DNA of 43,042 nucleotides from a virus. Positions 1-37,595 of this stretch are shown here, one piece after another (position 1 is the first letter of the stretch; each line of letters begins with the position of its first letter). The position numbers were made by a program, and so were the translations under genes. The stretch is from positions 1-43,042 of the IMG/VR virus record IMGVR_UViG_3300031671_000549; one strand, written 5' to 3'. The notes under the pieces are model-generated. The model worked only from the letters and a program-made list of their open reading frames with translations. It was not told where the DNA came from and did not search any database.

Positions 1-1056
1 ATGCTCACCGTTTACCGAAGGCATCGCGAGAGCTGCAAGCACCGCTCGATGGGCCAGCGGAAATGCAACTGTCCAATCTGGGTGCATGGGAAGTTGAATG
101 GGAAGTTCATGCGCCAGTCATTGGGGACGCGGAACTTCGAGGCCGCTCACCGGATGGTGAGGGAGTGGGAGGAACAGGGAAAAGCGGTCGAGGGAATCAC
201 GGTCGCCGAGGCGTTCAAGCGTTTCATCGCGGACTGCAAGGCGCGAGGGCTGGGGTCCGCCCAGCTTGGAAAATACGAGCTGCTTGAAACCGAGCTGAAG
301 GACGAGTTTGGGCAGAGGCCGGTCGTCATCATCACGGCCGACGATCTCCGAGCCTTCCGCGAGAAGTGGAGTGTCGCGTCGGTCACCGCCTACAAAAAGC
401 TGGAGCGTCTGCGCACATTTTTCCGCTTCTGCCACGATTCGGGGTGGATTAGCAAGAACCCCGCGCGAGTGCTAAAGCCGCCGAAAGTGAAAATGAAGCC
501 TACGCTTCCCCTGAGCAAAGAACAGTTGGAAAAAATCACTTGGGCGTTTGAGGTCTATCCGGATCGTCCGAAGGGAAGACGCGAGCAAGTCCGGGCCTTC
601 ATCCTGCTCCTTCGGTATTCCGGCCTCCGTATCGGCGACGCGGTGAGCTTGACCGCCGACAAAATCCATGACGGGAAATTGATGCTCTATACCGGCAAAA
701 CGGGGACGCCGGTTTATTTGCCGTTGCCGGAAGAAGTGGAAAGTTGTTTGAAACATGTTGCGGACATCGACGGCCGTTTTTTCTGGTCGGGGAATGGGAT
801 TTTGAAATCCGCGGTTGCGGATTGGCAGCGGTCGCTCTCAAAGCTCTTCAAGCTCGCCGGCGTGAAGGCCCATGCCCATCAATTCCGGCATACGTTCGCG
901 GTGAACCTGTTGCAATCCGGCGTGTCGCTCGAAACGGTGTCCATCCTCCTCGGGCACTCCTCCCTCAAGATCACCGAGAAGCACTATGCCCCTTGGGTGA
1001 AGTCGCGGCAGATCGCGTTGGAAGCCGAGATCCAGAAGGCGTGGAATACCACTTGA
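1..1056 (+). CDS. int: Tyrosine recombinase / phage integrase
   Basis: Site-specific recombinase expected to integrate and excise the phage by a covalent 3'-phosphotyrosine mechanism. The 351-residue protein has a Cys-rich N-terminus (CKH...CNC, residues 12-24), then a SAM-like core-binding domain (about 65-160) and a C-terminal catalytic domain. The catalytic set is visible: Arg210 in YSGLRIGD, Lys233 in TGKTG, His293-x-x-Arg296 in HAHQFRHTF, His319 in LLGHS and nucleophile Tyr329 in EKHYAPW. The length is normal for the family. The ATG is base 1 of the window, so an upstream extension cannot be excluded, but the N-terminus resembles complete family members. It is the only plus-strand gene at this end and converges on a cluster of small minus-strand genes. 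No att core could be defined. Confidence 0.95.
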   Translation: MLTVYRRHRESCKHRSMGQRKCNCPIWVHGKLNGKFMRQSLGTRNFEAAHRMVREWEEQGKAVEGITVAEAFKRFIADCKARGLGSAQLGKYELLETELKDEFGQRPVVIITADDLRAFREKWSVASVTAYKKLERLRTFFRFCHDSGWISKNPARVLKPPKVKMKPTLPLSKEQLEKITWAFEVYPDRPKGRREQVRAFILLLRYSGLRIGDAVSLTADKIHDGKLMLYTGKTGTPVYLPLPEEVESCLKHVADIDGRFFWSGNGILKSAVADWQRSLSKLFKLAGVKAHAHQFRHTFAVNLLQSGVSLETVSILLGHSSLKITEKHYAPWVKSRQIALEAEIQKAWNTT

Positions 1057-4736: not shown

Positions 4737-4934
4737 TTATCGTGGAGACCACCATTCGCGCCGGAGGATCTCGACGCATTCATCGAAAGAATGAGCATTC
4801 GAGAACAGGAGGTGATATGCCTCGTGTTGGTTCCTCGGCTTGACGAGGATGAATTGGGGCTTGGTTTTGCTTTTCGGCGGGACGTGATGGCGGGTCGGTT
4901 CGTGCTTGTGGTTGGGAGGGAGGTTGGATTTCAC
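4737..4934 (-). CDS. Small basic protein, unknown
   Basis: A 65-residue protein with a His/Pro/Lys-rich disordered first half (residues 1-25) and a compact second half ending FDECVEILRREWWSPR. Translation starts at GTG 4934, which overlaps the TGA of the upstream gene as GTGA, so expression is probably coupled. The stop falls just before the terminator at 4702-4729, making it the last cistron of this leftward operon. The family is not recognised. The composition would suit a nucleic-acid-binding or adaptor role, but that is inference. Confidence 0.65.
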   Translation of the reverse strand: MKSNLPPNHKHEPTRHHVPPKSKTKPQFILVKPRNQHEAYHLLFSNAHSFDECVEILRREWWSPR

Positions 4935-5188
4935 TGCGGCCCTCCCATCTGCTTCTCGAAGGGTTCCATGACGCCGCTGAAGAAATCGGCTGTGAGGCAG
5001 TCATGGATGATGCCCCAGAAATGCCGGTAGAGGGTGTAGTCCCGATAGCACTTGGGACACGCGCAATAGAGGGCGATATAGCCGCCGGAATTGGCATGGA
5101 CTTCCATCACCATCAGCTTTGCGCCATCCTCCGTGCAGGTTGCGGTAACGGGATGGTAGGGTTTGTCTTTATGCAGTTCAGGTTGCAT
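4931..5188 (-). CDS. Small zinc-knuckle protein, unknown
   Basis: An 85-residue protein with a Cys cluster, CACPKC (residues 43-48), plus an earlier CTED. It may bind one zinc ion. The C-terminal half is aromatic and helical (YTLYRHFWGIIHDCLTADFF). The start ATG at 5188 has a good GAGG five bases upstream, located inside the end of the upstream gene, with which it overlaps by 11 bases. It lies in an operon of small proteins between the DUF932 gene and the restriction cassette. The family is not recognised. Confidence 0.7.
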   Translation of the reverse strand: MQPELHKDKPYHPVTATCTEDGAKLMVMEVHANSGGYIALYCACPKCYRDYTLYRHFWGIIHDCLTADFFSGVMEPFEKQMGGPQ

Positions 5189-5363
5189 CGGGAACCTCTT
5201 GCTGTTTCCGGCGTTTGAGCCAGTTGAGCAAGAACTCGTAATAGCAGTTCTTGCCTTTCGGATCGCGGTGAAACCAGATGGGCTGGCCCGTATAGGGGTG
5301 TTTGAACCTCACCCACGGTGTTCCTTCAGCCATTGATTCACTGCACCAAAAACATTCGTGCAT
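5178..5363 (-). CDS. Small protein with N-terminal CxxC, unknown
   Basis: A 61-residue protein beginning MHECFWCSESM, with CFWC at residues 4-7, then a segment resembling a short beta hairpin (TPWVRFKHPYTGQPIWFHRDPKG) and a basic C-terminus. Start ATG 5363 follows a near-perfect AAGGAGG spaced five bases. The Shine-Dalgarno overlaps the TAA of the upstream membrane-protein gene. It is probably a small metal-binding phage accessory protein. No family assignment is possible by eye. Confidence 0.7.
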   Translation of the reverse strand: MHECFWCSESMAEGTPWVRFKHPYTGQPIWFHRDPKGKNCYYEFLLNWLKRRKQQEVPDAT

Positions 5364-5372
5364 GGCTCCTCC

Positions 5373-5702
5373 TTACTTCGGCTCGACGTAGCCGATTCCC
5401 GCGATCAAGGCGTTGTTCACGAAGAGCACCGCTTTGTCGGTTGCGACGACGGTCATGCCGTCCCGTTGGGCGACGCATCCGAAGACGATCACGTAGCCAG
5501 GGAAGGTCTGCCAGTTGCGGTTGAGGTCGATGTCGGGATTCTCATAAAGGGATGGGGCGCGGTACACGAGAATCGCGTTGCGGCAGTGGGGCAAGCCCTT
5601 CAGCTTGGGATGGGGCCGAAGGATGAAGTAGAGGCACGGCGGCACGACGGTGAAAAACAGGATAAGGGTGATGTAGAAAGACACCTTGATCGCTCTATCC
5701 AT
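5373..5702 (-). CDS. Membrane-anchored protein, unknown
   Basis: A 109-residue protein with a single strong N-terminal transmembrane helix (residues 8-28, SFYITLILFFTVVPPCLYFIL), followed by a soluble domain of beta character (NAILVYRAP, GYVIVFGCVA, MTVVATDKAVLFVNNALIAGI). The topology suggests a membrane-tethered domain. Start ATG 5702 is preceded by AAGGAGG. It belongs to the leftward operon downstream of the DUF932 gene. A superinfection-exclusion or lysis-accessory role is conceivable from the topology alone. Confidence 0.7.
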   Translation of the reverse strand: MDRAIKVSFYITLILFFTVVPPCLYFILRPHPKLKGLPHCRNAILVYRAPSLYENPDIDLNRNWQTFPGYVIVFGCVAQRDGMTVVATDKAVLFVNNALIAGIGYVEPK

Positions 5703-34565: not shown

Positions 34566-35065
34566 GCGAATAATGATTGCGGTTTTGCGGCCTTTTCCTC
34601 GCTCCAAGTGGTGTGGGTGTGCTTCCAGTCAAATGTGCAACCTGGGCGCGGGCATTTCCATTCGGGAGGCGTAGGAAGGTGTGCCTCTATCGCGTCGTCA
34701 ACCGGGGAACCGACGATAGTGCCGATGTAGTTCTCGGCCGGAATGACCTTCATCCGATACCAGTAAAGTTTTGGATTCTCCGGATCGTGCCAGCCTTTCA
34801 AATCGCCCTTACTGATTCCGAGAAGATTGCCGTGAATATCGATGAACTGACACCTTGTCTTTCCTGACCATCGTCCCTCCGCAAGGTCATTTATCCTGCC
34901 GCCGACGCGAGCCAAGCTCTTGAAGTCGCCGCGGCCACAGTGGAAACAGATATTGGAGGATGGGTAGACGGCCTTCACGATCTCGTCCGTCCGGTGAGGT
35001 CGGCCGTCTTTCAAAAGCTCGTAGAGACGCGCCGTTTGTGAGATTGGGGCGTTGTGGGTGGTCAT
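34562..35065 (-). CDS. Winged-helix/zinc-knuckle early protein
   Basis: A 167-residue protein. Residues 8-60 read as a winged helix (QTARLYELLKDGRPHRTDEIVKAVYP, ARVGGRINDL) interrupted by a CFHC (ICFHCGRGDF) knuckle. The C-terminus has a second CPRPGC (WKCPRPGCTFDWKHTHTTW). DNA-binding regulation or replication-initiation accessory functions fit, but no exact family is known. Its ATG (35063-35065) overlaps the 6-bp target duplication of the adjacent transposon, so the element lies directly at its 5' end. The native leader is now ~2.5 kb away at 37588 onward. No ribosome site is visible. It heads the early operon reading left. Confidence 0.7.
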   Translation of the reverse strand: MTTHNAPISQTARLYELLKDGRPHRTDEIVKAVYPSSNICFHCGRGDFKSLARVGGRINDLAEGRWSGKTRCQFIDIHGNLLGISKGDLKGWHDPENPKLYWYRMKVIPAENYIGTIVGSPVDDAIEAHLPTPPEWKCPRPGCTFDWKHTHTTWSEEKAAKPQSLFA

Positions 35066-35090
35066 TTCTGGGTACTGGGTCAGTTTGAAT
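35064..35090. repeat. Left end: target duplication plus terminal inverted repeat
   Basis: ATTTCT (35064-35069) is the target duplication and shares the AT of the adjacent start codon. 35070-35090 is the 21-bp terminal inverted repeat, beginning GGGTACTGGGTC, identical to the reverse complement of 37561-37581. Confidence 0.85.
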
Positions 35091-35236
35091 CTTCCCGACT
35101 CTAAGGGCTCAAGCGCTTGGCATCATAATTGCCTGGCGGCGCGGGGTGTGCTTTGATTCCACCTCTCAAGCCGCGCGCATTCGGCTTTCGACCGTTTCCT
35201 TGTCCGAATCCGGGGCGGCTTCCGAAACGAGGCTGC

Positions 35237-36043
35237 ATGACGATTGCAATCGGAATGTTGTGCCACGGAGGGGCCATTCTGGCCGTGGACGGCCGGGCCA
35301 CCGATCTCGACGGTACGGTTACGCGCGGCAGAAAACTTTGCGTAGTCAATAATGCTCAGGGAATTTCTTTCGGAATTGCAACGGCTGCCGATAACTTAAA
35401 TGCAGCAGAGACGGTTGTACGCGAAATTTCTACGAGGATCATCGGGAAAGCGAAAACGATTAAGAAATGGGCACAAGTAGAACGCTGCATCAAAGAAAAA
35501 ATGACAGAGTGGGCGCGAGCTTATGGACAGAATCCTTTCCCCCGAACTAATCTAATTGCCGGAATAACAATCGCGGGGCAAGGCACGCGGCTGTATTTCT
35601 GCGAGCCTCCGAACACAGTTCTTCCTAATAAAGACGGCTATATAGCGGTAGGAACCGGAGCGGCAGTCACTGACCCTCTTTTTACCGCGTTTTTCACTCC
35701 TCTTTTTGCGAGTTCGGGGCCGCAATATGTTTGCCGTGGACTCTGTTACCTGATGTACCGTGCAAAGAAAGACAATATGTATTGCGGGGGACCGACAGAT
35801 GCGGTTTATTTGGATACTCACAAAGCATCAGCAATCTGGCTCAATGGAAATGACTTCAGGGATGCAGAAAGCGCTTCTTTCCAGCTAGATTTAATCCTTC
35901 AGGCAACCACAACAGCCGCTTTGACCGACGCAGGGCCATTCTTAAAGAACAATGCTTCAGGAATCGAAAATTTGATTGTCCAATGTGAAAGGCTCAGGGA
36001 AACGGTATTCCGCGCTGCCGGCGGAAAGGCAATCGGGAAATAA
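35237..36043 (+). CDS. Proteasome/HslV-like Ntn hydrolase (passenger of the transposon)
   Basis: A 268-residue protein with the N-terminal-nucleophile layout of a proteasome beta/HslV subunit. After removal of Met the nucleophile would be Thr1 (MTIAIGMLCHGGAILAVDG). Asp17 (AVDGRAT) matches HslV Asp17, and Lys32 (TVTRGRKLCVV) fits the HslV Lys33 position. GISFGIATAADNLNAAETVVREI (about residues 42-64) resembles the helix after the first strands. The rest is longer than HslV (about 175 residues) and divergent. It has no HslU/AAA partner here. ATG 35237 has GAGG upstream, and the frame upstream lacks features. Codons are less GC-rich than in the phage genes. Whether it assembles or cuts proteins is unknown. 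Confidence 0.78.
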   Translation: MTIAIGMLCHGGAILAVDGRATDLDGTVTRGRKLCVVNNAQGISFGIATAADNLNAAETVVREISTRIIGKAKTIKKWAQVERCIKEKMTEWARAYGQNPFPRTNLIAGITIAGQGTRLYFCEPPNTVLPNKDGYIAVGTGAAVTDPLFTAFFTPLFASSGPQYVCRGLCYLMYRAKKDNMYCGGPTDAVYLDTHKASAIWLNGNDFRDAESASFQLDLILQATTTAALTDAGPFLKNNASGIENLIVQCERLRETVFRAAGGKAIGK

Positions 36044-36060
36044 ATACTCAGATGAAACCA

Positions 36061-36894
36061 TCATTCCCTGCTATCGAGCAGCGAAATCATTTCCTCGATA
36101 GACCAAACATGGTCCGCGATTCCCGCTTCCATCGCGGGAGTCACGCGGAGCGTTTCGTGGACTCGGCAGAAATTGTAATGCATGTAGTGAATCGCAATCG
36201 ACGCGATGTGATTCTCGACTTTCTTCGAGTGGGCGTTGGTCAGTCGCGTGAATCGGCGCATGTGCATCCGCATGGTGAGGTTTTGCCTCTCGACGAAACT
36301 GGTAGAGACGTGCCGGGAATCGGGCTTTCCAGAAATCGCCACCTCGCGGCAGCCGATGCACTCTGCCGGGCTGTACCGCGTGTCATTCGACCCATCGTTA
36401 CCGTAGAGCTTGACCAGCATCGCGTAATCGATCTCGCTTCCAAAGCTATCTTCCACAGCATTCAGATATGGGCGATGGCCGTCCGTTGTCAGTTGCACGC
36501 GATTCGCAAGCCGCTTTGCCAAGTCCTGCATAAAACCGTAGGCGCTTCCAGCGTCGCGTCCGGCAACGAGCCAAGAAACGATCAGTTTGCTGTCGGCATC
36601 CATTCCAACCCACGTCCACACGTCGCCATAGCCAAACTTGCCGCGAAGCTCTCCCCGAAGGTTTTTCTCTTTGGCATAGCAGAAAGACCAAATTTCGTCG
36701 CACTGAATGCGCTTGCTGTTCAAATTAATCAGGGCCTTGTCGAGGTATTCAGAGCAGGCCGCACCAAGTTCAACGAGCAACTTCGCAATCGTGTTCTTGG
36801 AGACGCCCGTCATGCGCACGGTCGCCCGGATGCCGTTACCTTCGACAAGGGCCGCAACCACTTGACGCCGCTTCTCTGTGCTCAGCTTGTTCAT
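36061..36894 (-). CDS. IS1-like DDE transposase
   Basis: A 277-residue transposase with a helix-turn-helix N-terminus (QVVAALVEGNGIRATVRMTGVSKNTIAKLLVELG) and a DDE catalytic core: Asp66 in RIQCDEIWSF, Asp138 in TTDGHRPY and Glu202 in SFVERQNLTMRMHMRRF, with HxMHYNFCRVHETLRVTPAMEAG near the C-terminus. It is annotated as IS1-like by overall pattern. A start 10 codons upstream (36924) was rejected because a strong promoter (-10 TACAAT at 36904-36909) puts the transcript start near 36897, so ATG 36894 is the likely start. It cuts and joins the 21-bp ends of the surrounding element. Confidence 0.88.
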   Translation of the reverse strand: MNKLSTEKRRQVVAALVEGNGIRATVRMTGVSKNTIAKLLVELGAACSEYLDKALINLNSKRIQCDEIWSFCYAKEKNLRGELRGKFGYGDVWTWVGMDADSKLIVSWLVAGRDAGSAYGFMQDLAKRLANRVQLTTDGHRPYLNAVEDSFGSEIDYAMLVKLYGNDGSNDTRYSPAECIGCREVAISGKPDSRHVSTSFVERQNLTMRMHMRRFTRLTNAHSKKVENHIASIAIHYMHYNFCRVHETLRVTPAMEAGIADHVWSIEEMISLLDSRE

Positions 36895-36903
36895 AATGGA
36901 CAC

Positions 36904-36932
36904 ATTGTATAAGCGGTCAAGCATAAAGTCAA
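36904..36932 (-). promoter_or_regulatory. Strong promoter of the transposase gene
   Basis: On the minus strand TTGACT (36927-36932), a 17-base spacer and TACAAT (36904-36909), both 5 of 6 to consensus. The transcript would begin a few bases before the ATG at 36894, giving an almost leaderless message. Confidence 0.65.
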
Positions 36933-37061
36933 GTAGAAAATGAGGCAGTAAATATGCATGAAGGAGAAGGATTACATACTGTAACTCTTGGGTTTCAAGC
37001 TGACTGGTTAAAGGAGATGCTAGGAGAAGTACTTTTATTGCGGGATTCTGATGCTGATGGT

Positions 37062-37259
37062 CTACTTCCTGCGGAACTTCTCCAAAGTTTTCTCGACTTC
37101 CAAGAGGCCCCTTCGGAACTTTTCAGCTTCGACTTTAAAAGAGAAGTTGCAGGCGGGGCAGACGAGTATCGGATTATTCTCAAGCCTAGCGATAGATTCT
37201 TGAATTTTGTGCTGGCACTTCGGGCATGGGATCGGAATCGTCACGTTGCGGTTTAGCAT
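37062..37259 (-). CDS. Small zinc-ribbon protein (transposon passenger)
   Basis: A 65-residue protein with two zinc-binding knuckles, CPKC (residues 12-15) and CPAC (34-37), a classic small zinc ribbon, followed by a basic C-terminal helix (FKVEAEKFRRGLLEVEKTLEKFRRK). It lies 4 bases downstream of the 83-residue gene, so it is translated from the same leftward message. Possible roles include DNA or RNA binding within the element. No family is recognised. Confidence 0.65.
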   Translation of the reverse strand: MLNRNVTIPIPCPKCQHKIQESIARLENNPILVCPACNFSFKVEAEKFRRGLLEVEKTLEKFRRK

Positions 37260-37263
37260 GATT

Positions 37264-37515
37264 CTATTTCTTTCTCCATCGCGCCTTAGCTGCCTTTGCC
37301 GCGATCTGGGATCGTTTCCTCTTGCTCAAGGCTGCGGCACGGGCATGGCCTCCCTTGAGGCCGCCCAAGCGCCCCAGAGAGACCGCAGCGGGATTTTTGG
37401 GGCGCTCGGCGGGGGGCTCAAACTTTGGAACTTGGCCGGTGGATTCGAGCATGATCTGATAGGCAAGCTGGTTCGGATCACGCGGGCGGGCTTGCTTCTT
37501 TGACCGCTCAGGCAT
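37264..37515 (-). CDS. 83-aa basic AlaArg/histone-like protein (transposon passenger)
   Basis: An 83-residue protein with a disordered N-terminus and a C-terminal basic segment (SLGRLGGLKGGHARAAAL..., RSQIAAKAAKARWRKK). The GxLGGLKGGxARAAxL and KAAKARWRKK elements recur in small bacterial proteins often found beside mobile elements. Nucleic-acid binding is inferred. A TTG-started longer form (37566) runs into the terminal repeat and is not used, because a good promoter (37522-37550) would start the transcript near the ATG at 37515. Confidence 0.65.
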   Translation of the reverse strand: MPERSKKQARPRDPNQLAYQIMLESTGQVPKFEPPAERPKNPAAVSLGRLGGLKGGHARAAALSKRKRSQIAAKAAKARWRKK

Positions 37516-37521
37516 GTACTG

Positions 37522-37550
37522 ATGGTAGGGCCGAAAGAAAACGGAGTCAA
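37522..37550 (-). promoter_or_regulatory. Promoter inside the right end of the element
   Basis: On the minus strand TTGACT (37545-37550), 17 bases, TACCAT (37522-37527, 4 of 6). The transcript would begin within a few bases of the ATG at 37513-37515. It shares the -35 and spacer length of the transposase promoter. Confidence 0.5.
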
Positions 37551-37560
37551 ACGAATGAAA

Positions 37561-37587
37561 ATTCAAACTGACCCAGTACCCATTTCT
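37561..37587. repeat. Right end: terminal inverted repeat plus target duplication
   Basis: 37561-37581 is the 21-bp inverted repeat matching 35070-35090. ATTTCT (37582-37587) is the second copy of the target duplication. Confidence 0.85.
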
Positions 37588-37595
37588 GAGTTTGA

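What the first reader, a model, noticed from the sequence alone, without database searches (positions are those of the whole stretch)
35237..36043. Stand-alone proteasome/HslV-like peptidase as transposon cargo
Thr1, Asp17 and Lys32 fit the HslV active-site spacing, but there is no ATPase partner and the protein is about 90 residues longer than HslV. A self-acting Ntn hydrolase moved by an IS1-like element in a phage is not something I know described.
Basis: partly seen in the sequence, partly recalled or inferred. Interest (0 to 1): 0.65.

Follow-up and report, generated by a model that had tools for sequence, protein, structure and literature searches.

The report
Proteasome-like enzyme carried by small transposon
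A small jumping DNA element inserted in a bacterial virus carries a lone, distant relative of the cell's protein-shredding proteasome with its catalytic residues intact; related elements in many bacteria carry such enzymes or known virus-defence genes, which gives these unexplained proteasome relatives a genomic setting and a testable role.

Summary
ORF 35237-36043 (268 aa) is a proteasome-beta-fold protein (profile vs PDB 4e-13; AlphaFold pTM 0.75; Foldseek top hit Anbu, then 20S beta; VIA Z 23.8 with model residue 2 on Thr1). Over 30 relatives, some 13-20% identical, the nucleophile is Thr 28/Ser 2, Asp17 is kept in 29, and Lys33 in all (one after a shift). The codon before Thr is always a start codon. 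The gene is cargo of an exactly delimited 2,510-bp element (35071-37580): 20/20 terminal repeats, 8-bp target duplication, an IS1-like transposase and a small basic 'KGG' protein. I delimited 90 such elements in many phyla (74 with matching duplications; KGG in 85). Cargo varies: proteasome-like proteins, ImmA/IrrE, SDH and trypsin-like peptidases, PD-lambda-2/RosmerTA-like, CapP, BstA, Fic. Relatives also sit beside IS1595 transposases. No unfoldase gene was seen in the window. Best reading: an ATPase-independent threonine hydrolase spread by transporter insertion sequences, probably as a defence or toxin-type effector. That role is inferred only from shared cargo. Stand-alone proteasome homologs, some in phages, were known (Fuchs 2021), but without an informative context; the recurrent transposon context appears new. 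HslV membership is not supported.

The parts
35071..37580 (.). 2,510-bp transposon (transporter-IS type element)
   Evidence: perfect 20-bp terminal inverted repeats and 8-bp target duplication
35063..35070 (.). target site duplication, left copy CATTTCTG; contains the start codon (as CAT) of phage ORF 34562-35065(-)
   Evidence: direct read; ORF list
37581..37588 (.). target site duplication, right copy CATTTCTG
   Evidence: direct read
35071..35090 (+). terminal inverted repeat GGTACTGGGTCAGTTTGAAT next to the cargo
37561..37580 (-). terminal inverted repeat GGTACTGGGTCAGTTTGAAT next to the KGG gene
35237..36043 (+). proteasome-beta-like Ntn hydrolase, 268 aa; mature Thr1, Asp17, Lys32
35229..35232 (+). 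Shine-Dalgarno-like GAGG, 4 nt before the ATG
   Evidence: direct read
35153..35236 (+). in-frame open leader rich in Pro/Arg/Lys upstream of the ATG (possible TTG start); function unknown
   Evidence: in-frame Pro 21% against 10% and 7% in the other two frames over 18 relatives
36061..36924 (-). IS1-like DDE transposase, 287 aa, convergent with the cargo
   Evidence: NCBIfam IS1 4e-14 but below cut-off; Pfam DDE_Tnp_IS1 8e-4; relatives 52-69% identical
37264..37566 (-). small basic KGG-type protein (probable start ATG at 37515), found in nearly all elements of the family
   Evidence: 85 of 90 elements; window hit E=3e-31
36954..37256 (+). 100-codon ORF between transposase and KGG gene, unassigned, may be spurious
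   Evidence: no Pfam or NCBIfam match

Best explanation
The gene encodes a proteasome-beta-fold N-terminal-nucleophile hydrolase. Translation starts at the ATG before Thr (inferred from conserved start codons); methionine aminopeptidase would remove the Met and leave Thr1 as nucleophile, with Asp17 and Lys32 completing the proteasome-type centre (residues shown conserved; activity inferred). It works without a dedicated ATPase, probably as a homo-oligomer using Anbu-like C-terminal helices, on unfolded or specific substrates (inferred). It is cargo of a transporter insertion sequence with an IS1-like transposase and a KGG protein (shown). The element family mobilises mostly small defence, toxin-antitoxin and peptidase genes, so the most likely role is host- or prophage-protective: an abortive-infection or toxin-type protease (inferred from shared cargo only).
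For: Fold and ancestry. Active site over 30 divergent relatives. Initiation directly before Thr: the codon is ATG, GTG or TTG in every case, and several relatives have a stop just upstream. Mobility. Recurrent capture: 17 of 120 transposase lineages carry such a gene, with at least 10 label changes on the tree; on the protein tree, transposon-borne and other copies are interleaved, at least 8 changes forced by supported branches; 4 of 12 other Acidobacteriota loci have an IS1595 transposase adjacent and convergent. Defence context: cargo of sister elements matches PD-lambda-2 (12), RosmerTA RmrA (5), CapP (5), BstA, SoFic and AriA and Pfam M78, SDH protease, trypsin, PIN, Fic, DUF3800; a control set of flanking ORFs has no PD-lambda-2, RmrA or CapP among its top families.
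Against: No protein of this family matches a defence model convincingly. There is no biochemical or phage-challenge evidence. Position 47 (oxyanion Gly) appears to be Ala in the window protein. No constant partner gene was found beside it. About 8 of 14 independently found Acidobacteriota relatives are beside neither kind of transposase, so the family is not tied to transposons. PADLOC models of HTH plus ImmA-type proteins also match ordinary regulators.
Confidence: 0.5

Rival explanations
1. Active proteasome-like hydrolase with a quality-control or regulatory role (for example clearing unfolded proteins, or specific cleavage or ligation as in connectase) that gives the host a general benefit and rides on transposons by chance of capture.
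For: Fuchs et al. 2021 (PMC8665760) favour ATP-independent functions; many relatives are chromosomal without adjacent transposase.
Against: Repeated independent association with two kinds of cargo-bearing transposons and company of defence and toxin-antitoxin cargo.
Confidence: 0.3
2. Phage-serving gene: an anti-defence or virion-processing protease acquired by the phage through the transposon.
For: Proteasome-like cargo is commoner in elements from viral contigs (8/31) than from genomes (5/80), Fisher p=0.0075; proteasome homologs in phages are known (PPH, AAH; PMC8665760).
Against: The element is a self-contained insertion with its own ends, not a phage module; most members lie in bacterial genomes; the viral/genome contrast is confounded by transposase relatedness and by prophages.
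Confidence: 0.12
3. Transposition accessory: the protease regulates transposase or the KGG protein.
For: Convergent neighbour of the transposase in both IS1-like and IS1595 elements.
Against: Present in only about one element in seven to eight; sister elements with the same ends and transposase lack it.
Confidence: 0.05
4. Catalytically dead structural relative (alpha-subunit-like).
For: Gly47 is Ala in the window protein; Asp17 is Asn in L031.
Against: Thr/Ser1, Asp17 and Lys33 are among the few positions kept over 13-20% identity.
Confidence: 0.05

Closest known systems
Prokaryotic proteasome-like homologs (22 families incl. PMI-1..6, PHI, WPH, PPH, AAH; Fuchs, Alva and Lupas 2021, PMC8665760)
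   Same: proteasome-beta fold, Thr1/Asp17/Lys33, no AAA+ partner, some in phages; [quoted passage not shown]
   Different: that paper reports no informative genomic context and never mentions transposons; whether the window protein falls in one of its clusters could not be tested (sequences not at hand)
Anbu
   Same: best Foldseek match over most of the length (E 4e-12, TM 0.66/0.76), long C-terminal helix
   Different: ~15-19% identity; no Anbu-type neighbours in the element; quaternary form unknown
20S proteasome beta subunit
   Same: profile and fold match, Thr1 superposes (VIA Z 23.8)
   Different: no alpha subunit or ATPase seen; about 60 residues longer C-terminally
HslV (and BPH)
   Same: Thr1/Asp17/Lys33 spacing; phage family 'peptidase HslV' (phrog_1040) matches weakly
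   Different: no HslV model match, no HslU, C-terminal extension absent from HslV and BPH
Transporter insertion sequences (tIS) of the IS1595/IS1 group
   Same: single transposase, short TIRs, 8-bp duplication, passenger genes
   Different: transposase scores below the IS1 family cut-off; a conserved second KGG gene; consistent peptidase and defence cargo
Tn7-like transposons with defence cargo (PMC8649781)
   Same: transposons loaded with diverse defence genes
   Different: unrelated, far smaller element (2-7 kb) with one transposase and one or few cargo genes

Membership tests
Proteasome-like (PF00227) superfamily | sequence match to the family | tested here: met
   alone 22.1 bits against cut-off 22.4; 10/13 relatives at E<=0.1; 16-sequence profile E 4e-13 to PDB beta subunits
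Proteasome-like (PF00227) superfamily | four-layer alpha-beta-beta-alpha Ntn fold | tested here: met
   AlphaFold pLDDT 77, pTM 0.75; Foldseek and VIA top hits Anbu and 20S beta
Proteasome-like (PF00227) superfamily | Thr/Ser1, Asp17, Lys33 | tested here: met
   30/30, 29/30, and 30/30 with one shifted
Proteasome-like (PF00227) superfamily | oxyanion Gly47 | tested here: inconclusive
   Gly in most relatives, Ala or Ser in the window protein and a few others
Proteasome-like (PF00227) superfamily | hydrolytic activity | not testable with these tools
   needs purified protein
HslV | match to HslV family models | tested here: not met
   NCBIfam at E<=1 gives only archaeal proteasome alpha/beta models
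HslV | HslU-type AAA+ partner encoded nearby | tested here: not met
   no unfoldase in element or window; only TerL has a credible Walker A; a host-encoded partner is not excluded
Anbu | fold with long C-terminal helix H5 | tested here: met
   helices 204-229 and 240-260, Anbu as top Foldseek hits; the last helix has low confidence
Anbu | orthology and split-ring assembly | not testable with these tools
   15-19% identity only; assembly needs EM
Fuchs 2021 clusters (PMI, PHI, WPH and others) | cluster membership at P<1e-10 | not tested
   their sequences are not in the tools
Transporter insertion sequence (tIS) | one transposase, TIRs, TSD and passenger gene within the same ends | tested here: met
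IS1 family (strict) | score above family cut-off | tested here: not met
   NF033558 52.9 bits against 100; PF03400 20.2 against 24.1: IS1-like, not strict IS1
Known anti-phage defence protein | match to a PADLOC model | tested here: not met
   no match for the window protein; two marginal hits among five relatives
Known anti-phage defence protein | protects against phage | not testable with these tools
   needs plaque assays

The most novel reading that the evidence does not exclude
Proteasome-fold threonine hydrolases form a widespread, ATPase-independent class of anti-phage or abortive-infection effectors dispersed by a KGG/IS1-like and IS1595 transporter-IS system specialised in single-gene defence cargo, which would give the uncharacterised proteasome homologs of bacteria a function.
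Probability: 0.3. Interest if true: 0.85.

Novelty: new variant of a known kind. Interest (0 to 1): 0.62.

Why it matters
The 2021 survey of 22 new proteasome-homolog families ended with no genomic context that hints at function. Finding that a divergent branch is repeatedly cargo of two kinds of small transposons, beside well-known defence and toxin-antitoxin genes and three other peptidase folds, turns an open question into a simple test: does the Thr1-intact protein, and not T1A, protect against phage or kill cells? It also points to a compact family of cargo transposons with sharp ends and an unexplained second core gene (KGG), whose 90 delimited examples can serve as a discovery set for new defence genes.

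Tried and rejected
Close relatives of the window protein: none in viral contigs, plasmids or phages; a 13-sequence alignment was too divergent to seed a pattern scan. Empty-site relatives of the phage: none from the disrupted neighbour ORF. Idea that the family is always transposon cargo: rejected, 12 of 14 new Acidobacteriota loci lack the IS1-like element. Idea that the remaining loci are plain chromosomal: partly rejected, 4 of 12 adjoin IS1595 transposases. Idea of a Panacea antitoxin beside the L245 homolog: rejected by Pfam. Idea of a cleaved propeptide as the only start: weakened, since the codon before Thr is always ATG, GTG or TTG and some relatives have a stop just upstream; but the in-frame Pro/Lys/Arg-rich leader is statistically real and unexplained. 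Idea that the leader comes from the transposon end: not supported, as non-proteasome right-slot cargo lacks it. Literature searches for this combination found nothing; subscription papers and preprints were not searchable. VIA rows show no HslV or connectase, which excludes nothing.

Full report
Observation. The ORF at 35237-36043 (+) encodes 268 aa. Without the initiator Met it reads Thr1-Ile-Ala-Ile-Gly, Asp17 and Lys32. A Shine-Dalgarno-like GAGG lies 4 nt upstream of the ATG. Pfam Proteasome matches at E=1.3e-4, 22.1 bits against a cut-off of 22.4. NCBIfam gives only archaeal proteasome alpha and beta models, no HslV. PHROGs gives a weak 'peptidase HslV family' match, E=0.0014, and 3e-10 for relative L067.

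The element. Perfect 20-bp inverted repeats GGTACTGGGTCAGTTTGAAT bound 35071-37580 (2,510 bp), flanked by the 8-bp duplication CATTTCTG at 35063-35070 and 37581-37588. The left copy holds the start codon of the phage ORF 34562-35065(-), so the insertion separated that gene from its native upstream sequence (direct read). Inside are the proteasome-like gene, a convergent IS1-like transposase 36061-36924(-), and a small basic KGG-type gene at the far end, 37264-37566(-). The host replicon is an IMG/VR virus record of a tailed phage with terminase, portal, head, tape-measure, SSB, RecT, RecE-like exonuclease and primase genes. The only credible Walker A in the window is in the terminase, so no unfoldase partner is encoded here; a host-encoded one is not excluded.

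A family of cargo transposons. Transposase relatives were taken from viral contigs (31 loci) and named genomes (80 loci kept, at least 587 matches; Acidobacteria, Verrucomicrobia, Planctomycetes, Nitrospira, Deltaproteobacteria, Chloroflexi, Bdellovibrionota and others). Of 111 transposase loci including the window, 90 could be delimited by repeats of the type GGTAGTGGGTCAGTTTGAAA, and 74 of these have at least 7 of 8 matching duplication bases. A profile of the KGG protein hits 85 of 90 elements, 78 of them within 300 bp of the end, so it is a core component. A scan for the terminal repeat also found elements with 8-bp duplications but no transposase, including KGG plus cargo (L139, L168, L207) and MITE-sized ones of 186-359 bp.

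Cargo. Among 140 cargo ORFs, Pfam finds HTH_3 (22), ImmA/IrrE peptidase M78 (10), SDH-type serine protease (5), PIN (3), and Trypsin_2, DUF3800, Panacea, Fic, NYN and BstA-like P63C (2 each). PADLOC finds PD-lambda-2 (12), RosmerTA RmrA (5), CapP (5), BstA, SoFic and AriA (2 each) among 243 families. A control of 140 ORFs directly flanking the elements matched 69 families, led by mad2 (6) and methyltransferases, with none of the first three in the listed top 25. Only tallies per family were returned, so I give no per-element rate. Several HTH/M78 models also match ordinary regulators.

Proteasome-like cargo is recurrent. Profile searching found it in L004, L005, L007, L013, L014, L027 and L031 (viral), in L039, L060, L067, L076 and L103 (genomes), and, from the terminal-repeat scan, in L149, L193, L204 (two tandem copies) and partly L216. 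On a transposase tree of 120 rows, 17 carry it, with 10 label changes (shuffled mean 16.1; 0 of 500 as low): clustered, but gained or lost several times. It is commoner in viral (8/31) than genomic elements (5/80), p=0.0075, though transposase relatedness confounds this.

Search from the protein side. The profile hit 13 of 396 Acidobacteriota genomes and, of 288 Verrucomicrobiota genomes, only the seed. Of 14 new Acidobacteriota loci, 2 (L124/L131 and L130) lie in the IS1-like element. Four of the other 12 (L234, L238, L244, L247) have an IS1595-family transposase adjacent and convergent (PF12762, E=4e-31 for L234). In the protein tree, transposon-borne and other copies interleave: 10 changes, at least 8 forced by supported branches, with six supported sister pairs of the two kinds. 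The family is thus not confined to transposons but is repeatedly captured by two kinds.

Fold and active site. A 16-sequence profile hits proteasome beta subunits in PDB at 4e-13, with the query Thr aligned on Thr1. AlphaFold gives pLDDT 77/pTM 0.75 for the window protein and 84/0.79 for L149. Foldseek ranks Anbu first (E 4e-12, TM 0.66/0.76), then 20S beta; VIA-align gives Z 23.8 to Mycobacterium tuberculosis 20S beta with model residue 2 on Thr1. The extra length is C-terminal helices 204-260, reminiscent of Anbu H5. [quoted passage not shown] Across 30 sequences position 1 is Thr 28/Ser 2, Asp17 29/30, Lys33 30/30 allowing one shift. The oxyanion Gly47 looks like Ala in the window protein; the backbone NH could still serve (inference).

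How Thr1 is exposed. The codon before Thr is ATG, GTG or TTG in all 30, never another codon, and some relatives have a stop just upstream. Removal of Met before Thr by methionine aminopeptidase is standard (own knowledge), so no propeptide is needed. Yet the upstream stretch is open in frame and rich in Pro, Arg and Lys: Pro 21% in frame against 10% and 7% (p=8e-11), stops 2 against 9 and 15. It is not set by the transposon end, because the distance to the repeat varies in all three phases and other right-slot cargo lacks it. A leader or second, longer isoform is possible; I leave it unexplained.

Mechanism and verdict. Shown: proteasome-beta ancestry and predicted fold, conserved catalytic residues, no unfoldase in the window, carriage by a delimited transposon, recurrence. 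Inferred: Thr1 activation by Met removal, hydrolysis, oligomerisation. Inferred more weakly, from shared cargo only: a defence or toxin-type role. Fuchs et al. 2021 described 22 families of such homologs and found no context suggestive of function; their text has no word beginning 'transpos'. Whether the window protein belongs to one of their clusters is untested. I therefore file it as a proteasome-like superfamily member, not as HslV, Anbu or a known defence protein, carried by a tIS-type element.

Noticed in passing
window 37264-37566 (-) and 85 of 90 elements: A small basic KGG protein (GRLGGLKGGKARAxxLSxxxRxxIAxKAAxARW) is encoded just inside one transposon end in nearly all elements, even some without transposase; no Pfam or NCBIfam match for the window copy, possibly a transposition accessory.
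   Followed up: partly
window 35153-35236 and the same place in about 18 relatives: In-frame Pro/Arg/Lys-rich leader upstream of the Met-Thr start, significantly enriched in frame 0; function unknown.
   Followed up: partly
L139, L141, L148, L168, L200, L206, L207, L218: Elements with the same ends and 8-bp duplications but no transposase: MITE-sized, or carrying KGG plus cargo.
   Followed up: partly
L002, L006, L011, L019, L020, L022: Other cargo of the same transposons is rich in peptidases of unrelated folds (ImmA/IrrE, SDH/ClpP-like, trypsin-like).
   Followed up: partly
L204:3765-4568 and 4893-5699 (-): Two divergent proteasome-like genes in tandem beside one terminal repeat in a viral contig; could be a two-subunit system.
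   Followed up: no
L234, L238, L244, L247: Proteasome-like genes convergent with IS1595-family transposases in Acidobacteriota, two of them in one genome.
   Followed up: partly
L060:4858-5631 and L119: Relatives with Ser instead of Thr at position 1; the L060 reading frame is also broken.
   Followed up: no
L043 (Haloferula luteola), L075 (Formosimonas limnophila): Elements of this family in named cultured strains, useful as natural hosts for transposition tests.
   Followed up: no
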